From assembly GCA_009846685.1 (NCBI GenBank), contig VWVY01000001.1:806001-870000 (forward strand): DNA of 64,000 bases, written 5' to 3'. Below are positions 3,585 to 14,375 of this stretch, piece after piece; positions within the stretch are counted from its first letter, which is position 1; each line of letters begins with the position of its first letter. The translations under genes were made by a program, and so were the position numbers. This DNA comes from Rhizobiales bacterium SYSU XM002 (GTDB lineage: Bacteria; Pseudomonadota; Alphaproteobacteria; Rhizobiales; Beijerinckiaceae). The notes below the pieces were generated by a model. It ran no database searches. It saw only the letters and a list, made by a program, of their open reading frames with translations, and was not told where the DNA came from.

Positions 3585-5252
3585 TCAGTTCTTGAAGATG
3601 TCGCGATCCTTGGTTTCCGGCAGGAAGAGCATGCCGATCACCACCGTCATCAGCGCAACCACGATCGGGTACCACAGGCCGGCGAAGATATCGCCGGTCG
3701 CGGCGACGATCGCGAAGGCCGTCGGCGGGAGGAAGCCGCCGAACCAGCCGTTACCGATGTGATAAGGCAGCGACATGCCGGTGTAGCGGATGCGGGTCGG
3801 GAAGAGTTCGACAAGCATCGCAGCGATCGGGCCGTAAACCATCGTCACGTAGATGACGAGGATGAACAGCAGGCCGATGATCTTGAGCGCACGGCCATCC
3901 GAGAGCACGCCACCGACTGACGGCGCCTTCAGGATGGTCGGGTCCGCAGCCTTCGGATAGCCCGCCTCGACAGCCGCCGCGGCGACGTTCTTGGCGAAGT
4001 CCTTGTCGACGGTCACGGCCTTGCCGTTGACGGTGACGGTGGTGCCCGAACCGGCAGCGCCGTTCTCGAGCTTGTAGGCGATGGCCGAGGCGGCGAGGCC
4101 ACGGCGGGCGATGTCGCACGCCACGGTGAAGGTACGCACGTTCACCGGATCGAACACGTTGCCGCAGGTCGCCGGATCGGCCGTCACGATAACCTTCACC
4201 TTCTCATGGGCTTCCATGAGCTTCGGGTTGGCCGTGTGGGCGATCATGTTGAAGATCGGGAAGTAGGTCGCGGCCGCAATCAGGCAGCCCGCCATCAGGA
4301 TCGGCTTGCGGCCGATCTTGTCCGAGAGCCAGCCGAAGAAGATGAAGAACGGCGTGCCGAGCAGGAGCGAGCCGGCGATCAGCAGGTTCGCGGTGGTGCC
4401 GTCGACCTTCATGGTCTGGGTGAGGAAGAACAGGGCGTAGAACTGGCCCGTGTACCACACCACGGCCTGGCCGGCGGTGCCGCCGAGCAGCGCGATGAGC
4501 GCGACCTTGGCGTTCTTCCACTGGCCGAAGGCTTCGCCGAGCGGCGCCTTCGAAAGCGTGCCCTCAGCCTTCATCTTCTGGAACGCCGGCGATTCGTTGA
4601 GCTGGAGACGAATCCAGATCGAGATGATCAGCAGCAGGACCGAGACGATGAACGGGATACGCCAGCCCCAGTTGGCGAAATCTTCCGGCGTCATCGACAG
4701 GCGGAGCGTCAGAATGACGATCAGCGAGGCAAAGAGGCCGACGGTCGCGGTGGTCTGGATCCACGAGGTGTAGAGACCGCGGCGTCCGTGCGGCGAGTGC
4801 TCGGCCACGTAGGTCGCGGCGCCGCCGTACTCACCACCGAGCGCGAGCCCCTGCACAAGGCGGCAGATGATGAAGCCGATCGGTGCGAGAATGCCGATCG
4901 AGGAATAGCCCGGCATGATGCCGATGACGAAAGTCGCGATACCCATGAGGGTCATCGTGACAAGGAAGGTGTACTTACGGCCGATCAGGTCGCCGAGGCG
5001 GCCGAACACCAGCGCGCCGAACGGGCGGACAGCAAAGCCGGCGGCGAAGCCGAGGAGCACGAAGATGAAGCCCGCGGTGGGGTTCACGCCCGAGAAGAAG
5101 TTGGCGCTGATATTCGCAGCAAGCGAGCCAGCAAGATAAAAATCATACCATTCGAAGACAGTACCGAGCGAGGAAGCAAGAATTACTCGCTTTTCTTCAG
5201 GTGTCATCGGACGATCGGGGGATTCCGACGCTGCCGTTCCCTGCATGGCCAT
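3585..5252 (-). CDS. MFS transporter, metabolite:H+ symporter (MHS/ProP-like) family with large loop insertion
   Basis: This 555-residue membrane protein has the MHS-family signatures in order: ASSLGTVFEWYDFYL in TM1, GRLGDLIGRKYTF in the 2-3 loop, LVQGLALGGEYGGAA in TM4-5, and GWLSDKIGRKP in the 8-9 loop. Such proteins import organic acids or compatible solutes with protons. Typical members have 430-450 residues. Here about 110 extra residues lie between the eighth-ninth TM region and TM10, just after the GRKP loop. They include a DPATCGNVFDP stretch and a second cysteine, and are probably periplasmic. I prefer the ATG at 5252 (GGAGA seven bases upstream) over the GTG at 5258. Substrate unknown. 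Confidence 0.88.
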   Translation of the reverse strand: MAMQGTAASESPDRPMTPEEKRVILASSLGTVFEWYDFYLAGSLAANISANFFSGVNPTAGFIFVLLGFAAGFAVRPFGALVFGRLGDLIGRKYTFLVTMTLMGIATFVIGIMPGYSSIGILAPIGFIICRLVQGLALGGEYGGAATYVAEHSPHGRRGLYTSWIQTTATVGLFASLIVILTLRLSMTPEDFANWGWRIPFIVSVLLLIISIWIRLQLNESPAFQKMKAEGTLSKAPLGEAFGQWKNAKVALIALLGGTAGQAVVWYTGQFYALFFLTQTMKVDGTTANLLIAGSLLLGTPFFIFFGWLSDKIGRKPILMAGCLIAAATYFPIFNMIAHTANPKLMEAHEKVKVIVTADPATCGNVFDPVNVRTFTVACDIARRGLAASAIAYKLENGAAGSGTTVTVNGKAVTVDKDFAKNVAAAAVEAGYPKAADPTILKAPSVGGVLSDGRALKIIGLLFILVIYVTMVYGPIAAMLVELFPTRIRYTGMSLPYHIGNGWFGGFLPPTAFAIVAATGDIFAGLWYPIVVALMTVVIGMLFLPETKDRDIFKN

Positions 5253-5270
5253 TTCCACTCTCCACTTTTG

Positions 5271-6097: not shown

Positions 6098-8803
6098 TTG
6101 GCCTCAGAGGGTTCGGAAGCGACGGTGACAAGCTGGCCCGTCCGATGGCTTTGGCGGCCAGACGACGACATGCTGGAAATCGATACCTCGCGCCGCGAGA
6201 TCGCCGAATGGACCGAGGCTGCCCAAGGTCCTACCGGGGCGGGCTTCCTCGCCCGCCTCCATCCCGACGATGTCGAACGGCATCGCGGCACCATGCGCGC
6301 GCACCTTGGCGGAGGACCGCCGTTTGCCTGCGCCTCGCGCCTTCTTGGCCCGCACGGCGAACCTCACTGGCTGTTCCTGTCTGGCGAGGCGGAACGCGAC
6401 GCCACAGGGCGCGCCATAGTCGTTCGCGGAACCGCCGTCCGCCTCGAGACTGCTGCGCCGACACTGCATGAAGCAACGGCTGCGCTGCCGATGGCCGATC
6501 TTTTTTCGGCCGGCGTCGCTGCGATGGAAGAGCGCGAGGCGGAACGGAACCTGCGGCTTCAGGCGGAAGAAAACGCGTTTTCACAGCGCGAATTCCTCTC
6601 GACCGTCAGCCACGAGATCCGCAATCCGCTGACCGTGATCTTCGCCAATATCAGCATCCTGCGCGCAAAAGCCGAGCGCGACGGCGATATGAATCTGATC
6701 CAGCGCCTGTCCTCCCTGGAAAAGTCCGGCCGCCACCTGCGCGACCTTGTTTCCGATGTTCTCGATCTCGCGAAACTCGAGGCCGGCCATCTCAAGACTG
6801 AAGCCGAGTGGTTCGACCTGACCGCGCTGCTCCTCGAGGTCGAGGAAATGGCGAACGCGCTCACCCGTGACGGCAGCGTGATGTTCCTGCTGGACATGCC
6901 GCTCGATCTCGGCCGGGTGTTCGGTGATCGGCTCAAGCTGAAACAGATCCTGCTCAACCTCATCGGAAATGCAGCGAAATTCACCAAAGAAGGCCGCATC
7001 GTCCTGTCTGTGACCGACCAGAACAGCACCATCCTGTTCGCGGTCGAGGATACTGGTCCCGGCATTCCGCCGGATCGGCTCGACACCCTGTTCAAGGCGT
7101 TCTCGCAGATCGATGGCTCCAACGCGCCGCGCGCCGTCGGCACAGGGTTGGGGCTCTATATCTCCGAGCGCTATGTGCGCCTGCTGGGCGGTCGCCTTTC
7201 CGTCAAGAGCCAGATTGGTGAGGGCAGCACCTTCGATTTCGCGCTCCCGCGCGTCGCGCTCTCGAAGGTCGAGCGCGTCCCGCCAGTCCGCCGTGAAGAC
7301 AGGCTGGTCATCGGTCATACCGAGGACCTCGGCACGCTCGATCCGCATCTCCAGATGCGCGCGACCAACGCGATGATCGCCCGGCATCATTTCGACGCGT
7401 TGACGGCGATGGCTTCAACCGGCCGCTTGAAACCTGCCTTGGCCGAGCATTGGGAGCCACTCGGCGAGCATGGTTGGCGGTTTCACCTGCGTCGCGGCGT
7501 CCAGTTCCATGACGGCTCGACCTTCGACGCCGGAGATGTGCTTGCCACCTATGCGCGCGTACTTGGCGAGTCCGGCTCCCCCAGCGCCTACGCGGCCTTC
7601 CTTAAGCCGATCGTCTCGATCAAGGCGCTCGATCCTTTCACGCTGGAGATCGGCACCGAAGGACCGGTTCCGCTGCTGCCCGTCGACCTGAGCCATGTCG
7701 CGATCGTCAACCGGCGTTTCCGGACGGCGCCGACGGCAGCTTTTGACGGGCTTGAGGCCACCGTGGGAACCGGACCTTTCCGCCTCGTTGCCCGCCCCAG
7801 CACGCGAGCACTGCAATACGAGAGCTTCGCCGGGCATTGGGCAGGCACGCCGGAGTGGAAACAACTGGAGTTCCGTCTCATCGACGACAGCGGCCTTGCT
7901 TCCGTCAGCGCCCTCCTCGCAGGCGACGTCGATCTGATCGACAACGTCAGCCCGGAACAGTTCGTCGATTTGAGCCGGCGCGACGACGTGGTGCTCTCGA
8001 CCTGCGACAGCAACCGCGTCTGGTATCTCTTCTTCGATCAGTTCCGCGATGCTTCGCCCTGGATCACGGACAGGGCCGGTCAGCCCCTCACGACGAACCC
8101 GCTGCGTGACCCACGTGTCCGCAAGGCGATCTCGCTGGCGATCGACAGGCAGTTCATCACCCAGCGTCTGATGGCGGGACAAGGCACTCCGGTCGGCGAT
8201 GTCGCCGGTCCGGGCGTATTCGGCGTCAACCCCTCCCTCGCCCCGCCATCCTACAATCCGGCATGGGCTCGCCAGTTGCTTGCCGATGCCGGCTACCCTG
8301 AAGGGTTCGGCATCACCCTGCATGGCTCGCGCGACCGGTCTTTCCACGGCGCGACGACCCTGCGGGCCATCGAATTGATGCTCAACGCCATCGGCATCCT
8401 GTGCCGCTCAGAAGCGCTGCCTGCGGGAGAATTCTATCCTCGCGCGGCGCGGGGCGAGTTCAGCTTCGGCCTGTCGGGATGGGGGTCGATCACGGGTGAA
8501 ACCTCCTACAGCCTGCGCCTGCTCCTCTGTTCGCCCGATCCCGCGGGCGGTTTCGGTACCGCCAACCGCGGCGGCTACGCGAACACCCATTTCGACGAGC
8601 TCGTACGCGAGGCCGTCCGCACAATGGACGAAGACCGTCGCCGCATCCTCCTCGAGAAAGCATCCGCCATCGCAATGGCCGAAACCGCGATTGCCCCGAT
8701 CTGTGCCCGCCGGACCACCTGGGCTGCCAAGCGCGGCCTGCGTTACGAAGCGCAGATGGATGGCGCGACGCTCGCGGTCGGCGTCAGCCGGGAAGCCGAT
8801 TGA
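6098..8803 (+). CDS. Soluble PAS-histidine kinase fused to a C-terminal SBP_bac_5 substrate-binding domain
   Basis: About 901 residues from the TTG at 6098, which has AGAGGAG eight bases upstream; GTG at 6080 or 6062 are alternatives. In order: a PAS-like fold (residues 10-125), a short coiled coil, the HisKA H-box FLSTVSHEIRNPL with phospho-acceptor near His172, and a HATPase domain with N-box LNLIGNAAKF (near 291), DTGPGIP and GTGLGLYIS. From about 403 to the end there is a full extracellular-solute-binding family 5 domain (LKPALAEHWEPLGEHGWRFH, then FHDGSTFDAGDV), like DppA, NikA and the sensor part of SgrR. No transmembrane helix or signal peptide is seen at the N-terminus or at the junction, so both parts should be cytoplasmic. 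Probable partners are the two OmpR-type regulators next door. The ligand may be a peptide or related cytosolic solute (inference). Confidence 0.85.
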   Translation: MASEGSEATVTSWPVRWLWRPDDDMLEIDTSRREIAEWTEAAQGPTGAGFLARLHPDDVERHRGTMRAHLGGGPPFACASRLLGPHGEPHWLFLSGEAERDATGRAIVVRGTAVRLETAAPTLHEATAALPMADLFSAGVAAMEEREAERNLRLQAEENAFSQREFLSTVSHEIRNPLTVIFANISILRAKAERDGDMNLIQRLSSLEKSGRHLRDLVSDVLDLAKLEAGHLKTEAEWFDLTALLLEVEEMANALTRDGSVMFLLDMPLDLGRVFGDRLKLKQILLNLIGNAAKFTKEGRIVLSVTDQNSTILFAVEDTGPGIPPDRLDTLFKAFSQIDGSNAPRAVGTGLGLYISERYVRLLGGRLSVKSQIGEGSTFDFALPRVALSKVERVPPVRREDRLVIGHTEDLGTLDPHLQMRATNAMIARHHFDALTAMASTGRLKPALAEHWEPLGEHGWRFHLRRGVQFHDGSTFDAGDVLATYARVLGESGSPSAYAAFLKPIVSIKALDPFTLEIGTEGPVPLLPVDLSHVAIVNRRFRTAPTAAFDGLEATVGTGPFRLVARPSTRALQYESFAGHWAGTPEWKQLEFRLIDDSGLASVSALLAGDVDLIDNVSPEQFVDLSRRDDVVLSTCDSNRVWYLFFDQFRDASPWITDRAGQPLTTNPLRDPRVRKAISLAIDRQFITQRLMAGQGTPVGDVAGPGVFGVNPSLAPPSYNPAWARQLLADAGYPEGFGITLHGSRDRSFHGATTLRAIELMLNAIGILCRSEALPAGEFYPRAARGEFSFGLSGWGSITGETSYSLRLLLCSPDPAGGFGTANRGGYANTHFDELVREAVRTMDEDRRRILLEKASAIAMAETAIAPICARRTTWAAKRGLRYEAQMDGATLAVGVSREAD

Positions 8804-8821: not shown

Positions 8822-9547
8822 TCAGTCGCCGACGAACACATAGCCCGCCCCGCGGACCGTCTTGACGTAGCGCGGCGCATCCGGGGTCGGCTCGATCTTC
8901 TTCCGCAACCGCGTGATGCGGATATCGACCGCGCGTTCCGTATCGCCGTTATCACCACCGCCGGACAGTTCAAGAATATGGGCGCGCGAAAGGGTCCGCC
9001 CCGCCCGGGTGGCGAGGACGGACAGCAGGTCGAATTCCAGCGCCGTCAGGTCGATGGGCGCGCCATCGGCATCCAGCAGAATGCGCGCATCAAGGTCGAG
9101 CACCTTGCCCCCGAAGCGGATGCGCTTGCCCGGCGTTTCCGAAGGTGCCTCAATCCCGCGCACGTCTAATACTGGCAGCCGTCGCAGTACAGAGCGGACA
9201 CGCGCCAGCATCTCGCGCAGTTCATACGGTTTGACGAGATAGTCGTCCGCCCCGAGTTCCAACCCGATGATGCGGTCGATCGAGGTTCCGGCGGCGGTCG
9301 CGAAAATGATGCCGGTCTGCGCGCCCTTTCCCCGCATCCAGCGCGCGAGCGAGAGCCCATCCTCGCCTGGCATCGCGATATCGAGGATGGCGACGTCGAA
9401 TCCTCCAGAACCCAAAGCATCGCGAAACGCAGATGCGCGTGCGAAGCCTTCGACGGCGAAACCGTGCATTGCAAGGTATTCAACCACCGCCTCCCGGAGG
9501 TCATCCTCGTCATCGACAACCGCAATCCGCTTTTCGTCCCCGCTCAT
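8822..9547 (-). CDS. OmpR-family two-component response regulator
   Basis: The protein (241 aa) has a receiver domain with the acidic pair DDE (residues 12-14), phospho-acceptor Asp56 in AILDIAMPGEDG, and the conserved lysine in YLVKPYELREM. A winged-helix DNA-binding domain follows, ending in VKTVRGAGYVF. I place the start at ATG 9547 because GGAGGG lies just upstream and the receiver begins seven residues later; an upstream TTG at 9616 would only add a disordered tail. It ends 18 bases from the end of the kinase/SBP gene (tail to tail) and is divergent from the next regulator. It probably acts as a DNA-binding output of one of the neighbouring kinases. Confidence 0.92.
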   Translation of the reverse strand: MSGDEKRIAVVDDEDDLREAVVEYLAMHGFAVEGFARASAFRDALGSGGFDVAILDIAMPGEDGLSLARWMRGKGAQTGIIFATAAGTSIDRIIGLELGADDYLVKPYELREMLARVRSVLRRLPVLDVRGIEAPSETPGKRIRFGGKVLDLDARILLDADGAPIDLTALEFDLLSVLATRAGRTLSRAHILELSGGGDNGDTERAVDIRITRLRKKIEPTPDAPRYVKTVRGAGYVFVGD

Positions 9548-9633
9548 GCCCCCTCCACCACGCTCCGCTTGACTCGAACCGGAGCCTCTGGTCCCGTCCG
9601 CTTGTTGTGCAACCAAACAGGTGCCGGGTCCAG

Positions 9634-10311
9634 ATGGCGTCGCGCGGCCGTATCATCATCGTCGATGACGAGCCGGAACTGATTGCCGCCTTCGTCGAAT
9701 TCCTGAACGATCGCGGGTTTGACGCCGTGCCCGCAGCCGGCGCCTACGCTTATGACGCACTCGCCACGGCGGGAAAGCCCGATCTGGTGGTTCTCGACCT
9801 GCAGATGCCGGGAGAGAGCGGTCGCGATCTGCTCCTGCGTATTCGCACCGCGCACGACATCCCGGTGATCGTGATGACGGGTGCGAACGACCTGCTCGAT
9901 CGTGTGCTCTGCCTCGAACTCGGCGCCGACGATTTCGTCGAAAAACGGATCACCCCGCGCGAACTCACTGCCCGGATCCAGGGTCTGCTCGAACGGCGTG
10001 GCAGCGGACGGCGCGACATCGTCCGGTTCGAGCGCACGACGGTTGACCTGCGCGCGGCACTTGTCATGCACAATGACGGCACAGAGGAGCGGCTCGGGAT
10101 CAGTGAGATCATGCTGCTCAAAGCCTTTCTCGCCAATCCGCGCAAGCTATTGACAAGAGACGATATTCTCGACCTCGCACCCGCCCTGGACCGCGATGCA
10201 CTCGATCGGTCCGTCGATCCGCGCGTCGCACGACTGAAACGGAAGCTCGCTACTGAATGGATCGAGACACGGCGGGGGCAGGGATATGTCTATGCGCCGC
10301 AAAACAGCTAA
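9634..10311 (+). CDS. OmpR-family response regulator with atypical K-R in place of K-P
   Basis: The 225-residue protein has a receiver domain (DDEPE, Asp55 in VVLDLQMPGESG, switch region VMTGAND) and a C-terminal winged helix ending in IETRRGQGYVYAP. The usual lysine-proline pair at the end of the receiver is Lys104-Arg105 (FVEKRITPREL), so the conserved cis-proline is missing. The start ATG at 9634 begins two residues before the receiver core; no good Shine-Dalgarno sequence is seen. Seven bases after its stop the hybrid kinase gene begins, so the two are almost certainly co-transcribed. The 86 bases separating it from the divergent regulator should hold both promoters. Confidence 0.9.
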   Translation: MASRGRIIIVDDEPELIAAFVEFLNDRGFDAVPAAGAYAYDALATAGKPDLVVLDLQMPGESGRDLLLRIRTAHDIPVIVMTGANDLLDRVLCLELGADDFVEKRITPRELTARIQGLLERRGSGRRDIVRFERTTVDLRAALVMHNDGTEERLGISEIMLLKAFLANPRKLLTRDDILDLAPALDRDALDRSVDPRVARLKRKLATEWIETRRGQGYVYAPQNS

Positions 10312-10317
10312 GTCGAC

Positions 10318-12267
10318 ATGGAAGTCCGTATGAAAGTATTGGAATCGCATTGGCCGTCCGGGTTGCAGGGCCCGGATACGGCTGTGTTGCGAGCGGTCGT
10401 CGATGCCTGCCCGTCGCGGGTGTCGCTGGTGACGCCGGATCATCGCTATCTCTACGCCAATCCGGAGTTCCTTCAGTTCGTTGGGCTTTCGCTGGAGCAG
10501 CTCATCGGCCGCTCAGCACGTGACATTCTCGGCCCGGAAGTCTATTCCGCCTTCGCCGAAACCGCCTTGCAGGTTCGACCCGACCACACGCCGACCTGGG
10601 AAGGGTGGATCAATTTCTCAGGCAACCGGCGACGCTACCTCGATGTCACGATGGCGCCCTATGCGCCTGCCGGAGGCAAGCTGGAGGCGATCTTCGTCTT
10701 TGCCCGCGATACAAGCGAACTGAAGTTGCGCGAGCAGCAGCTGCGGGAGAGCATCGAGGATCTGAAGCGCACCGAGGCGGATCGCAACGCCTCCGACAAG
10801 GTCAACACCCAGATCGTGCAGAGCGCGCTTGACGCCTTCATCCTGGCGGACGCCGAGGGGATCATCCGGGACTTCAACCCGGCGGCCGAGGCGATGCTCG
10901 GCTACCGTCGCGAGGAAGCGATCGGCAAGCCTCTTGCCCAACTCATCATCCCCGAGCATCTGCGCGCGGCGCACAACGCGGGGATGGCGCGCTATCTTGC
11001 CTCCGGCGTGTCGCGGGTTATGGGTCGCCGCCTGCAGCTCGAAGCACTCGCGTCCGGCGGCGAAATTGTGCCGGTCGAGGTGACGCTGAACGAAGTCAAG
11101 CTGCCGGATCGGCATCTGTTCACGGCCCACATGCGCGATCTGCGCGACAGCAAGCGCGCGCAGGCCGAAATCGAGGCCCAGCGCGTCCGGATCCATCAGA
11201 TCGAGAAGCTGTCTGCGATGGGCTCGCTGCTCGCCGGCGTCGCGCACGAACTCAACAACCCGCTGGCGATCCTCGTCGCGCAATCGACGCTTCTGAAGGA
11301 AAAGGCGCCAACCAGCGATACCAAGCATCGTGCCGAGCGCATCCATGCCGCCGCCGATCGCGCGGGGCGGATCGTCAAGAGCTTCCTGGCGCTCGCACGG
11401 GAGAAGCCACCGTCGCGGGAGTTGACGGATGTGAACCGCCTCGCGGCCAACACATTGGAAATGCTCGCCTACGGGCTGAGGACCGCAGGCATCGAGATCG
11501 TGCGCGAGTTGGACGCGGCCATGCCGGAACTGCGGATCGATTCCGATCTGCTCGGACAGGTCTTCGCCAATATCGTGCTCAACAGCCAGCAGGTGCTGAT
11601 GACGCACCCGCGGCCGCGCATTCTGACCTTGCGGACCCGCGCCGCCGCCGATCATGTCACGATCGACATCGGTGACAACGGGCCCGGCGTCGCGCCGGAC
11701 CTCGCGGCGCGCATTTTCGACCCGTTTTTCACGACCAAGCCAGCAGGCGTCGGCACCGGTATCGGCCTCGCGATCTGCAAGGACATCGTTCAGGCGCACG
11801 GCGGCAAACTCGAACTCGCCGAGAATTCGCAAGCCGGCGCGCTGTTCCGCATCACCCTGCCCCGCATGATCGATGATCCTGCCACGGCGGACTCCGCCGC
11901 GAGCATGCCGAATGGCGAACGGATCCTCGTCGTCGATGACGAGCACGACGTCGGTGAAAGCCTCGGCGAGATCCTCGATGCTCTCGGCCATCGCGCAACG
12001 GTCACGGCTTCCGCGCTCGATGGTCTCAAACGCCTGCGAAGCGAAAGCTTCGACCGCGTTTTCGTCGATCTGAGAATGCCGGAACTCAACGGGCACGAAT
12101 TCCTGAAAGAACTGGCCGAAATCGACCCGTCGCTCGTGGCCCGCAGCATCCTGATGACCGGTGATACCGTGCGGGGACCTGCAACGTTGCTCGGTGGAGC
12201 CGATGTCCGCGTCCTCGAAAAGCCGTTCTCGCTGGATGATATCCGCGCTGTGATCAGCGCCGGCTGA
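10318..12267 (+). CDS. Hybrid sensor histidine kinase: PAS-PAS-HisKA-HATPase-receiver
   Basis: The 649-residue protein lacks membrane segments. Two PAS domains occupy about residues 20-135 and 160-275. The H-box LLAGVAHELNNPLAI places the phospho-acceptor at His310. The HATPase domain carries DNGPGVAPDL, FDPFFTTKP and GTGIGLAICKDIVQAHGG. A C-terminal receiver starts near 534 (RILVVDDEHD) with Asp584 in VFVDLRMPEL and the K-P pair in VLEKPFS. This resembles NtrB-like hybrid kinases that can pass phosphate to their own receiver or drain it. A start at ATG 10330, which has GGAAG upstream, is equally possible. It is co-transcribed with the OmpR-type regulator before it. Confidence 0.9.
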   Translation: MEVRMKVLESHWPSGLQGPDTAVLRAVVDACPSRVSLVTPDHRYLYANPEFLQFVGLSLEQLIGRSARDILGPEVYSAFAETALQVRPDHTPTWEGWINFSGNRRRYLDVTMAPYAPAGGKLEAIFVFARDTSELKLREQQLRESIEDLKRTEADRNASDKVNTQIVQSALDAFILADAEGIIRDFNPAAEAMLGYRREEAIGKPLAQLIIPEHLRAAHNAGMARYLASGVSRVMGRRLQLEALASGGEIVPVEVTLNEVKLPDRHLFTAHMRDLRDSKRAQAEIEAQRVRIHQIEKLSAMGSLLAGVAHELNNPLAILVAQSTLLKEKAPTSDTKHRAERIHAAADRAGRIVKSFLALAREKPPSRELTDVNRLAANTLEMLAYGLRTAGIEIVRELDAAMPELRIDSDLLGQVFANIVLNSQQVLMTHPRPRILTLRTRAAADHVTIDIGDNGPGVAPDLAARIFDPFFTTKPAGVGTGIGLAICKDIVQAHGGKLELAENSQAGALFRITLPRMIDDPATADSAASMPNGERILVVDDEHDVGESLGEILDALGHRATVTASALDGLKRLRSESFDRVFVDLRMPELNGHEFLKELAEIDPSLVARSILMTGDTVRGPATLLGGADVRVLEKPFSLDDIRAVISAG

Positions 12268-13025: not shown

Positions 13026-14375
13026 ATGTCCCGCAACCGGCCGAAATCGCCACTTCCCGCCGCCAGACTCGCGCTGATCACCGCCACAGTGCTCGGCGCG
13101 AGTGTGACCCATGCAGCGGCCAACTGCTCTGCCGCCGGCATCAATTGGCGGTCGGACCCCGTTTTCCGCGCGACCGAACACCCCGACGATCGGCAGAGGC
13201 CGGTGCGCACGGACGTCGTCTGTATCGTCGAGCAGGAATCGACTGTCACGGCTGGCAATGTTTCGCTCCGGCTGACGCTCGGCAAACTTACCTACGAGAA
13301 GGCCGACGGTATCGTGCTGCCGGTCCGGCTGGTCGATATCTCGAAGGTCGAGCCCACGGGCCTGCGCTCGATCGGCCGTATCCTTCTTGGCGAAGATCCG
13401 CTCGACCGTCAGCTCCGTTTCGAGCCGCAGGCCCGGGATATCGGCGGCACCGTCCTGATCCGCATCGCGCCGCGTCATGATGCCATCTATCGGCTGGACG
13501 GTGAGGCCCTGCGGCCGGTTGCAGCCGACGGCTGGCAGAAGGCGGCGCGTGCCGCCCTTCCCGAAAATGAGCGCGAAGGCTCCGCTCTGTCCATCGATCT
13601 CGAACGGATGGAGGGTCGCCTTTCGATCCGGGCCGGCGGCACGGACCCCGCCGTCGGCCCGCTGCCGAGCGCGTTCGCACCGCGTCGCGTCCTGGTTGCG
13701 GCACTTGTTTGGCGTGGCGGCGAGTTGTCTGTCGACAAGACCAGCATTGTCGAGCGCCGGGCAAACGATGAGGTGGCGCTTGACGGTTTCGAATCCGCCG
13801 AGGCCGATAGCCGCGCCGCACTTGGAACCCTTCCACCCGGTGTCGAGCCCTGCACGATCAGCGGCTGGTCCAACGACGTCGATCGAAAAGGCCTGAATGT
13901 AAGGGCTGCGCCGGATGCTAAAGCCAAGGTTGTCGGCATCGTGCCGCCGCCGCGCAAGATGCCGCCGGAAGATGATGCCTTCGGTTCCGGACCGGTCAAG
14001 GCGGAATTCAGGATCGCTGGCTACAAGGATGGCTGGTTCCTGATCGATGACATCAAAGCGCCGGGCACTCCCTATGACGTCACGTACCCACGCTCTCTGC
14101 CGCAACCCTACAAGGGCAGAGGCTGGGTCAACGGCAAGATGGTGGGAGCAGCACTTGCCAACGGCGGACTGCCGGAAGGTCGCGTCTACGCCGCCCCGCA
14201 CGCCGACGCCAGATCCCGCGAGGTTCTCAACAGCGAGGGCAACCGGATTAGCCTCGACGGTACGAAATTCAGGCTGCTCGCCTGCTCCGGCCCTTGGGGG
14301 CTCATCGAGATCGAGGGCGGTCATCGCGGCTGGTGGCGCGGCCTGTGCTCCAATCAGGTGACGAACTGCTCCTGA
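13026..14375 (+). CDS. Exported SH3b-domain protein of unknown function (449 aa)
   Basis: The ATG at 13026 follows GGGAGAAAGACC and starts a signal peptide (about residues 1-31, ending near THAAA). The central part, residues 35-270, is of unknown fold with few cysteines. From about residue 283 a bacterial SH3-type domain is visible (GWSNDVDRKGLNVRAAPDAK, with the typical LNVRAAP signature). The C-terminal 100 residues contain a second, SH3-like segment (GWVNGKMVGAAL to GHRGWWRGLCSNQ). SH3b domains bind cell-wall peptides or periplasmic partners, so an envelope location is likely. Cysteines near both ends could form disulfides. It is monocistronic as far as can be seen. Confidence 0.75.
   Translation: MSRNRPKSPLPAARLALITATVLGASVTHAAANCSAAGINWRSDPVFRATEHPDDRQRPVRTDVVCIVEQESTVTAGNVSLRLTLGKLTYEKADGIVLPVRLVDISKVEPTGLRSIGRILLGEDPLDRQLRFEPQARDIGGTVLIRIAPRHDAIYRLDGEALRPVAADGWQKAARAALPENEREGSALSIDLERMEGRLSIRAGGTDPAVGPLPSAFAPRRVLVAALVWRGGELSVDKTSIVERRANDEVALDGFESAEADSRAALGTLPPGVEPCTISGWSNDVDRKGLNVRAAPDAKAKVVGIVPPPRKMPPEDDAFGSGPVKAEFRIAGYKDGWFLIDDIKAPGTPYDVTYPRSLPQPYKGRGWVNGKMVGAALANGGLPEGRVYAAPHADARSREVLNSEGNRISLDGTKFRLLACSGPWGLIEIEGGHRGWWRGLCSNQVTNCS

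What the first reader, a model, noticed from the sequence alone, without database searches (positions are those of the whole stretch)
6098..8803. Soluble histidine kinase with a C-terminal oligopeptide/nickel-type substrate-binding domain
Seen: PAS, HisKA, HATPase and then a full family-5 solute-binding domain in one frame, with no signal peptide or membrane helix at the start or at the junction. Known: kinases with substrate-binding domains normally carry them at the N-terminus, outside the membrane. SgrR shows that a family-5 domain can act in the cytoplasm as a sensor. Inference: this is a kinase that reads a cytosolic ligand (peptide, sugar-phosphate or metal chelate) through its own binding domain, a sensor design I do not recognise.
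Basis: partly seen in the sequence, partly recalled or inferred. Interest (0 to 1): 0.78.

Follow-up and report, generated by a model that had tools for sequence, protein, structure and literature searches.

The report
Soluble histidine kinase with C-terminal solute-binding domain
A bacterial signalling kinase with no membrane parts carries, at its tail, a whole nutrient-capturing domain of the kind normally found outside the cell membrane, so it probably reads a small molecule inside the cell; this layout turned up in only two species among all the genomes searched.

Summary
Confirmed. Window 6098-8803 (+) is one intact 901-aa reading frame: PAS_3, HisKA (H172), HATPase_c and a complete family-5 solute-binding domain (SBP). 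It has no signal peptide or membrane helix by hydropathy. A second species of the genus has the same protein (71% identity over 889 aa) beside the same neighbours, so it is not a sequencing artefact. The SBP is under purifying selection as strong as the kinase core (dN/dS 0.12 vs 0.15; PAS 0.44). I found no other fusion in the genus (17 genomes), 397 family, 398 order, 385 class or 399 phylum genomes, nor one place covering at least 80% of it in the 5,000 best plasmid records.

The closest kinases are all hybrids with a receiver after the ATPase; here the SBP sits in that place. The SBP descends from signal-peptide-bearing, importer-type SBPs (43% identity at best), changed heavily on its stem branch, then froze.

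Best reading: a cytosolic kinase whose C-terminal SBP binds an unidentified peptide-like or amino-acid-like ligand and tunes kinase/phosphatase activity towards a neighbouring OmpR-type regulator. Ligand, partner and direction of control are inferred. Cytosolic family-5 sensors have precedent (SgrR, DsvR); the combination with a histidine kinase, at its C-terminus, is the new part.

The parts
6098..8803 (+). Gene for the soluble PAS-HisKA-HATPase_c-SBP_bac_5 kinase (901 aa; start TTG 6098, alternatives GTG 6062/6080)
   Evidence: orthologue L029:9275-11968 (71%)
6242..6436 (+). PAS_3-like domain (residues 49-113), fast evolving (45% identity over residues 1-135, dN/dS 0.44)
6494..6682 (+). Predicted continuous helix (residues 133-195): signalling-helix-like coiled coil running into DHp helix 1
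   Evidence: AlphaFold2 secondary structure, (low confidence at its start)
6584..6787 (+). HisKA/DHp domain (residues 163-230); phospho-acceptor H172 in SHEIRNP
6923..7252 (+). HATPase_c domain (residues 276-385) with N, G1, F and G2 boxes present
7253..7303 (+). Junction (residues 386-402), no signal peptide or membrane helix, predicted flexible
   Evidence: pLDDT below 50 at 387-397
7304..8800 (+). Family-5 solute-binding domain (residues 403-901), complete two-lobe fold
   Evidence: AlphaFold2 pLDDT 92.8; Foldseek TM 0.87/0.92 to 5u4o
8822..9616 (-). OmpR/TorR-type response regulator (likely start near 9547), convergent with the kinase gene; candidate partner (inferred)
   Evidence: conserved next to the fusion in G013 (74%)
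9622..10311 (+). Second winged-helix response regulator, divergent from the first
   Evidence: 76% in G013
10318..12267 (+). PAS-PAS-HisKA-HATPase_c-REC hybrid kinase
   Evidence: 73% in G013
13026..14375 (+). Exported-looking protein with a weak, sub-threshold SH3_3 match; among 41 genomes found only in the two species that have the fusion, beside the cluster in both (52%)

Best explanation
A soluble sensor histidine kinase that arose when the receiver end of a TorS/BarA-like hybrid kinase was replaced by the mature part of a family-5 SBP of the ABC-importer kind. SHOWN by computation: one gene in two species, kinase motifs present, complete SBP fold, no export signal by hydropathy, strong purifying selection on the SBP, and a shared gene neighbourhood. 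INFERRED: the SBP lies in the cytosol and binds an unidentified small molecule, most likely peptide-like or amino-acid-like. Its closing, passed on through the short junction to the ATPase domain of the dimer, changes the balance of autokinase and phosphatase activity. The phosphoryl group goes directly to a response regulator, most likely the convergent OmpR-type one at 8822-9616, because the kinase has no receiver or Hpt of its own.
For: Domain calls; orthologue at 71% through the junction. dN/dS: SBP 0.123, kinase 0.148, PAS 0.440. All nine nearest kinases scanned have a receiver after HATPase_c, and the best NCBIfam matches are hybrid kinases such as TorS, HrmK and BarA. Most free SBP relatives have signal peptides, and two of the four inspected lie in oligopeptide-type ABC operons. 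SBP model pLDDT 92.8, near-full match to family-5 structures. The fused pair is one clade (100/100) with stem 1.82 against tips 0.14 and 0.28. 44 of 169 columns conserved in free SBPs changed in both fusions, 35 to the same residue; free controls 2-26 of about 142. The longest identical runs between the fusions are the N-terminal strand/loop 403-430 and segment 736-758, which carries the position aligned with DppA R355. Neighbour cluster conserved.
Against: No binding or phosphorylation data. DppA's two ligand anchors (R355, D408; from general knowledge) align with S748 and I798, so classic dipeptide chemistry is not kept. The full-length model gives no confident packing between the SBP and the kinase (pTM 0.60, junction pLDDT below 50), so the signal path is not modelled. 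Partner choice rests on neighbourhood only; in G055 the homologous regulator lies directly upstream of a hybrid kinase, so it may serve that kinase. An N-terminal PAS is also present and could be the main input.
Confidence: 0.62

Rival explanations
1. The SBP no longer binds a small ligand and serves as a scaffold or docking domain, for example for a partner regulator or an importer's cytosolic parts, or holds the ATPase domain in one state.
For: Many positions conserved in transport SBPs are changed, including those aligned with DppA R355 and D408; a long stem branch fits loss of the old function.
Against: Most changes are the same in both species and then frozen; three pocket-region segments are 66/70 identical against 74% for the whole domain (segments chosen by me after seeing the alignment, so the p-value is descriptive). 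The pocket Trp shared with DppA (W795) and the whole two-lobe fold are kept.
Confidence: 0.2
2. The PAS domain is the true input and the SBP is a secondary modulator, such as feedback by an imported nutrient.
For: PAS is in the usual N-terminal place and is joined by a predicted long helix to the DHp.
Against: PAS is the least constrained part (45% identity, dN/dS 0.44) while the SBP is among the most constrained.
Confidence: 0.15
3. Assembly error, frameshift or decaying fusion joining two unrelated genes.
For: The architecture was found in two species only.
Against: An independent genome has it at 71% identity with the same junction, order and neighbours; no stops; dN/dS 0.17 overall.
Confidence: 0.01
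4. The SBP end is outside the cytosol by an unrecognised export route.
For: Most free relatives look exported.
Against: No hydrophobic segment at the N-terminus or junction in either species; an ATP-dependent kinase domain lies directly upstream.
Confidence: 0.02

Closest known systems
SgrR and DsvR (Vca0578)
   Same: A family-5 SBP domain at the C-terminus of a soluble regulator (HTH plus SBP_bac_5; PMC13060122)
   Different: Output there is an HTH DNA-binding domain; here it is a histidine kinase with H172 and an ATPase domain
TorS/BarA/ArcB-type hybrid histidine kinases
   Same: HisKA-HATPase_c core is nearest to these (nine relatives)
   Different: They carry a receiver (often Hpt) after the ATPase; here the SBP is in that place, and there are no membrane helices
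TorT-TorS, BctC-BctE, LuxP-LuxQ and BvgS-type SBP-linked kinases
   Same: An SBP controls a histidine kinase (BctC-BctE described in PMC9602780; the others from general knowledge)
   Different: There the SBP is periplasmic, a separate protein or N-terminal, and signals across the membrane
GsiB, DppA, 5u4o, AgaA (family-5 SBPs of ABC importers)
   Same: Fold and sequence family
   Different: Those are free, exported and transporter-linked; DppA anchor residues are not kept here
Azospirillum SBP5-hybrid kinase-response regulator gene trio (plasmid NZ_CP022369)
   Same: Family-5 SBP and kinase encoded side by side
   Different: Separate genes, SBP first with a signal-peptide-like N-terminus, kinase with membrane-helix-like segments (by eye)

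Membership tests
HisKA-type sensor histidine kinase | Phospho-acceptor His in the H-box and HATPase_c with N, G1, F, G2 boxes | tested here: met
HisKA-type sensor histidine kinase | Autophosphorylation and transfer to a response regulator | not testable with these tools
   needs protein
Hybrid histidine kinase (TorS/BarA-like) | Receiver domain C-terminal to the ATPase | tested here: not met
   no Response_reg match; SBP in its place
SBP_bac_5 fold family | Pfam SBP_bac_5 above cut-off and complete two-lobe fold | tested here: met
   208.7 bits vs 32.4
Transport SBP of an ABC importer | Signal peptide or lipoprotein anchor | tested here: not met
   hydropathy only; most free relatives have one
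Transport SBP of an ABC importer | Linked ABC permease/ATPase genes | tested here: inconclusive
   none recognised among the genes called around it in either species, but not every neighbour was scanned against a family library
SgrR family | N-terminal SgrR-type HTH domain | tested here: not met
   PAS-HisKA-HATPase instead
SgrR-like way of working (cytosolic family-5 sensor) | Ligand binding in the cytosol alters output | not testable with these tools
   inferred
Dipeptide-binding protein (DppA) | Arg355 and Asp408 ligand anchors | tested here: not met
   align with S748 and I798 (HMMER alignment, the R355 position could be off by one)

The most novel reading that the evidence does not exclude
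A previously undescribed sensor layout: a histidine kinase controlled from its C-terminus by a cytosolic family-5 SBP that took the place of a receiver domain and evolved a new ligand specificity after leaving transport.
Probability: 0.5. Interest if true: 0.65.

Novelty: new variant of a known kind. Interest (0 to 1): 0.55.

Why it matters
If true, it shows that a common peptide-binding fold of bacterial importers can be moved into the cytosol and wired to a histidine kinase from the C-terminal side, where most known inputs are N-terminal. It would be a natural case of turning a hybrid kinase into a metabolite sensor by swapping the receiver for a binding protein, useful for sensor design and for asking how C-terminal inputs control the ATPase domain.

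Tried and rejected
Artefact or pseudogene: rejected by the orthologue and selection. Long open frames reported for some free SBPs (e.g. G009, 856 aa) as further fusions: the one examined (L018) is a read-through open frame with a normal-looking signal peptide before the SBP. DppA-like dipeptide site: I first expected the Arg and Asp anchors to be kept; the alignment showed they are not. Azospirillum plasmid hits covering both halves: separate genes in the opposite order. Genome-contig scan: one weak kinase-only hit in a planctomycete MAG. Viral contigs: nothing. Promoter/terminator scan: no promoter match, one terminator-like site, fewer than in shuffles. Literature searches found no histidine kinase with a C-terminal SBP in the held open-access library.

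Full report
OBSERVATION. The reading frame at 6098-8803 (+) is intact and encodes, in order, PAS_3 (residues 49-113), HisKA (163-230), HATPase_c (276-385) and SBP_bac_5 (444-811), each above Pfam's cut-off. Kinase motifs are present: SHEIRNP with H172, the N-box at 287, DTGPG at 318, the F-box at 331, GTGLG at 348. Hydropathy shows no signal peptide or membrane helix. It is the only one of 12 SBP_bac_5 genes in this genome that lies in so long a frame (993 against at most 690 codons).

REALITY. A second species of the genus (G013) has the same protein, 71% identical over residues 11-899, open through the junction. Nei-Gojobori dN/dS between the two is 0.168 overall, 0.440 for PAS, 0.148 for the kinase and 0.123 for the SBP; synonymous sites are fairly saturated (dS 1.2-1.5), so the ratios are approximate. 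The SBP is therefore a functional part, constrained as strongly as the kinase.

DISTRIBUTION. Full-length searches found no other fusion in the remaining 15 genomes of the genus, or in 397 family, 398 order and 385 class genomes, nor did a junction-spanning query in 399 phylum genomes. No single place covers 80% of the query in the 5,000 best-scoring plasmid records. Limits: the sets overlap, only the best 2-4 candidates per genome were scored in the large searches, thresholds would miss very distant fusions, and UniProt/InterPro could not be queried.

ORIGIN OF THE KINASE HALF. Its best NCBIfam matches are hybrid kinases such as TorS, HrmK and BarA. All nine nearest relatives scanned carry one or two receivers after HATPase_c. 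The SBP here stands where the receiver stands in them. That the receiver was replaced is an inference from this comparison.

ORIGIN OF THE SBP HALF. The nearest free SBPs (up to 43%) are in other orders of the class. Most show a signal peptide just before the point where the fused domain begins. Of four inspected, two sit beside oligopeptide-type ABC permeases and ATPases, and three have an AstE/AspA-type deacylase gene nearby, which points to peptide or N-acyl amino-acid import in the ancestors. This is a hint about the old ligand only.

CHANGE AFTER FUSION. In a tree of 30 SBPs the two fused ones form one clade (100/100) on a stem of 1.82 changes per column, with tips of 0.14 and 0.28; the tool flagged their unusual amino-acid make-up, so the stem length may be inflated. 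Of 169 columns conserved in 25 free SBPs, 44 are changed in both fusions, 35 to the same residue; leave-one-out controls change 2-26 of about 142. The two longest identical runs between the fusions are residues 403-430 and 736-758. By alignment, DppA's R355 and D408 fall on S748 and I798, where free relatives mostly have Tyr and Gly. Reading: a burst of change, then strict conservation, including pocket-region segments. This fits a new ligand better than a lost one, but does not prove binding.

STRUCTURE. The SBP alone is predicted with pLDDT 92.8 and matches family-5 structures over its whole length: 5u4o (TM 0.87/0.92), GsiB (0.85/0.87), unliganded DppA (0.84/0.83) against liganded DppA (0.71/0.70). 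The full-length model has mean pLDDT 80.6 and pTM 0.60, a continuous helix at 133-195, weak PAS confidence and a flexible junction at 387-397. It gives no reliable contact between SBP and kinase.

NEIGHBOURHOOD. The fusion gene, a convergent OmpR/TorR-type regulator (8822-9616), a divergent second regulator (9622-10311), a hybrid kinase (10318-12267) and an exported-looking protein with a weak SH3_3 match (13026-14375) keep order and orientation in G013, while genes to the left differ. Above the thresholds used, the hybrid kinase and the first regulator were found in few other genomes of 61, and the last gene only in these two of 41. In G055, where no fusion was found, the homologous regulator lies directly upstream of a hybrid kinase and divergent from another regulator, so the regulator's pairing is open.

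MECHANISM AND NOVELTY. The best-supported account is a cytosolic metabolite-sensing kinase working like SgrR at the input and like an ordinary HisKA kinase at the output. SBP Pfam domains are known as sensor domains of cytosolic and membrane signalling proteins in general, and family 5 is predicted to bind mostly peptides (PMC9602780). An SgrR-like regulator with a C-terminal SBP_bac_5 domain is described in PMC13060122. I found no published histidine kinase with a C-terminal SBP in the held library. I therefore file it as a new variant of a known kind.

Noticed in passing
window 13026-14375; L029:16888-18429: Exported-looking protein with a weak SH3_3 match found only in the two species with the fusion (of 41 genomes) and beside the cluster in both; possible output or partner of the signalling module.
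   Followed up: partly
window 3585-5258 (-): MFS metabolite/H+ symporter whose TIGR00883 match is split into two stretches; the 557-aa protein appears to hold an extra stretch of roughly 100 residues.
   Followed up: no
L082:5875-11645 (Azospirillum sp. TSH58 plasmid NZ_CP022369): Family-5 SBP, large hybrid kinase and single response regulator as three adjacent genes: a possible multi-gene counterpart of SBP-controlled kinase signalling.
   Followed up: partly
G000:C1:21503-23008 (L071, L079): Paralogue of the hybrid kinase of this cluster (62% identity over residues 147-648) elsewhere in the same genome.
   Followed up: no
L098:6595-7686, L099:4751-5761, L101:11821-12810: AstE/AspA-type deacylase genes recur near free relatives of the SBP, hinting at N-acyl amino-acid or peptide import.
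   Followed up: partly
L029:16094-16714: In G013 an L,D-transpeptidase-like gene (by eye) lies between the hybrid kinase and the SH3-like gene.
   Followed up: no
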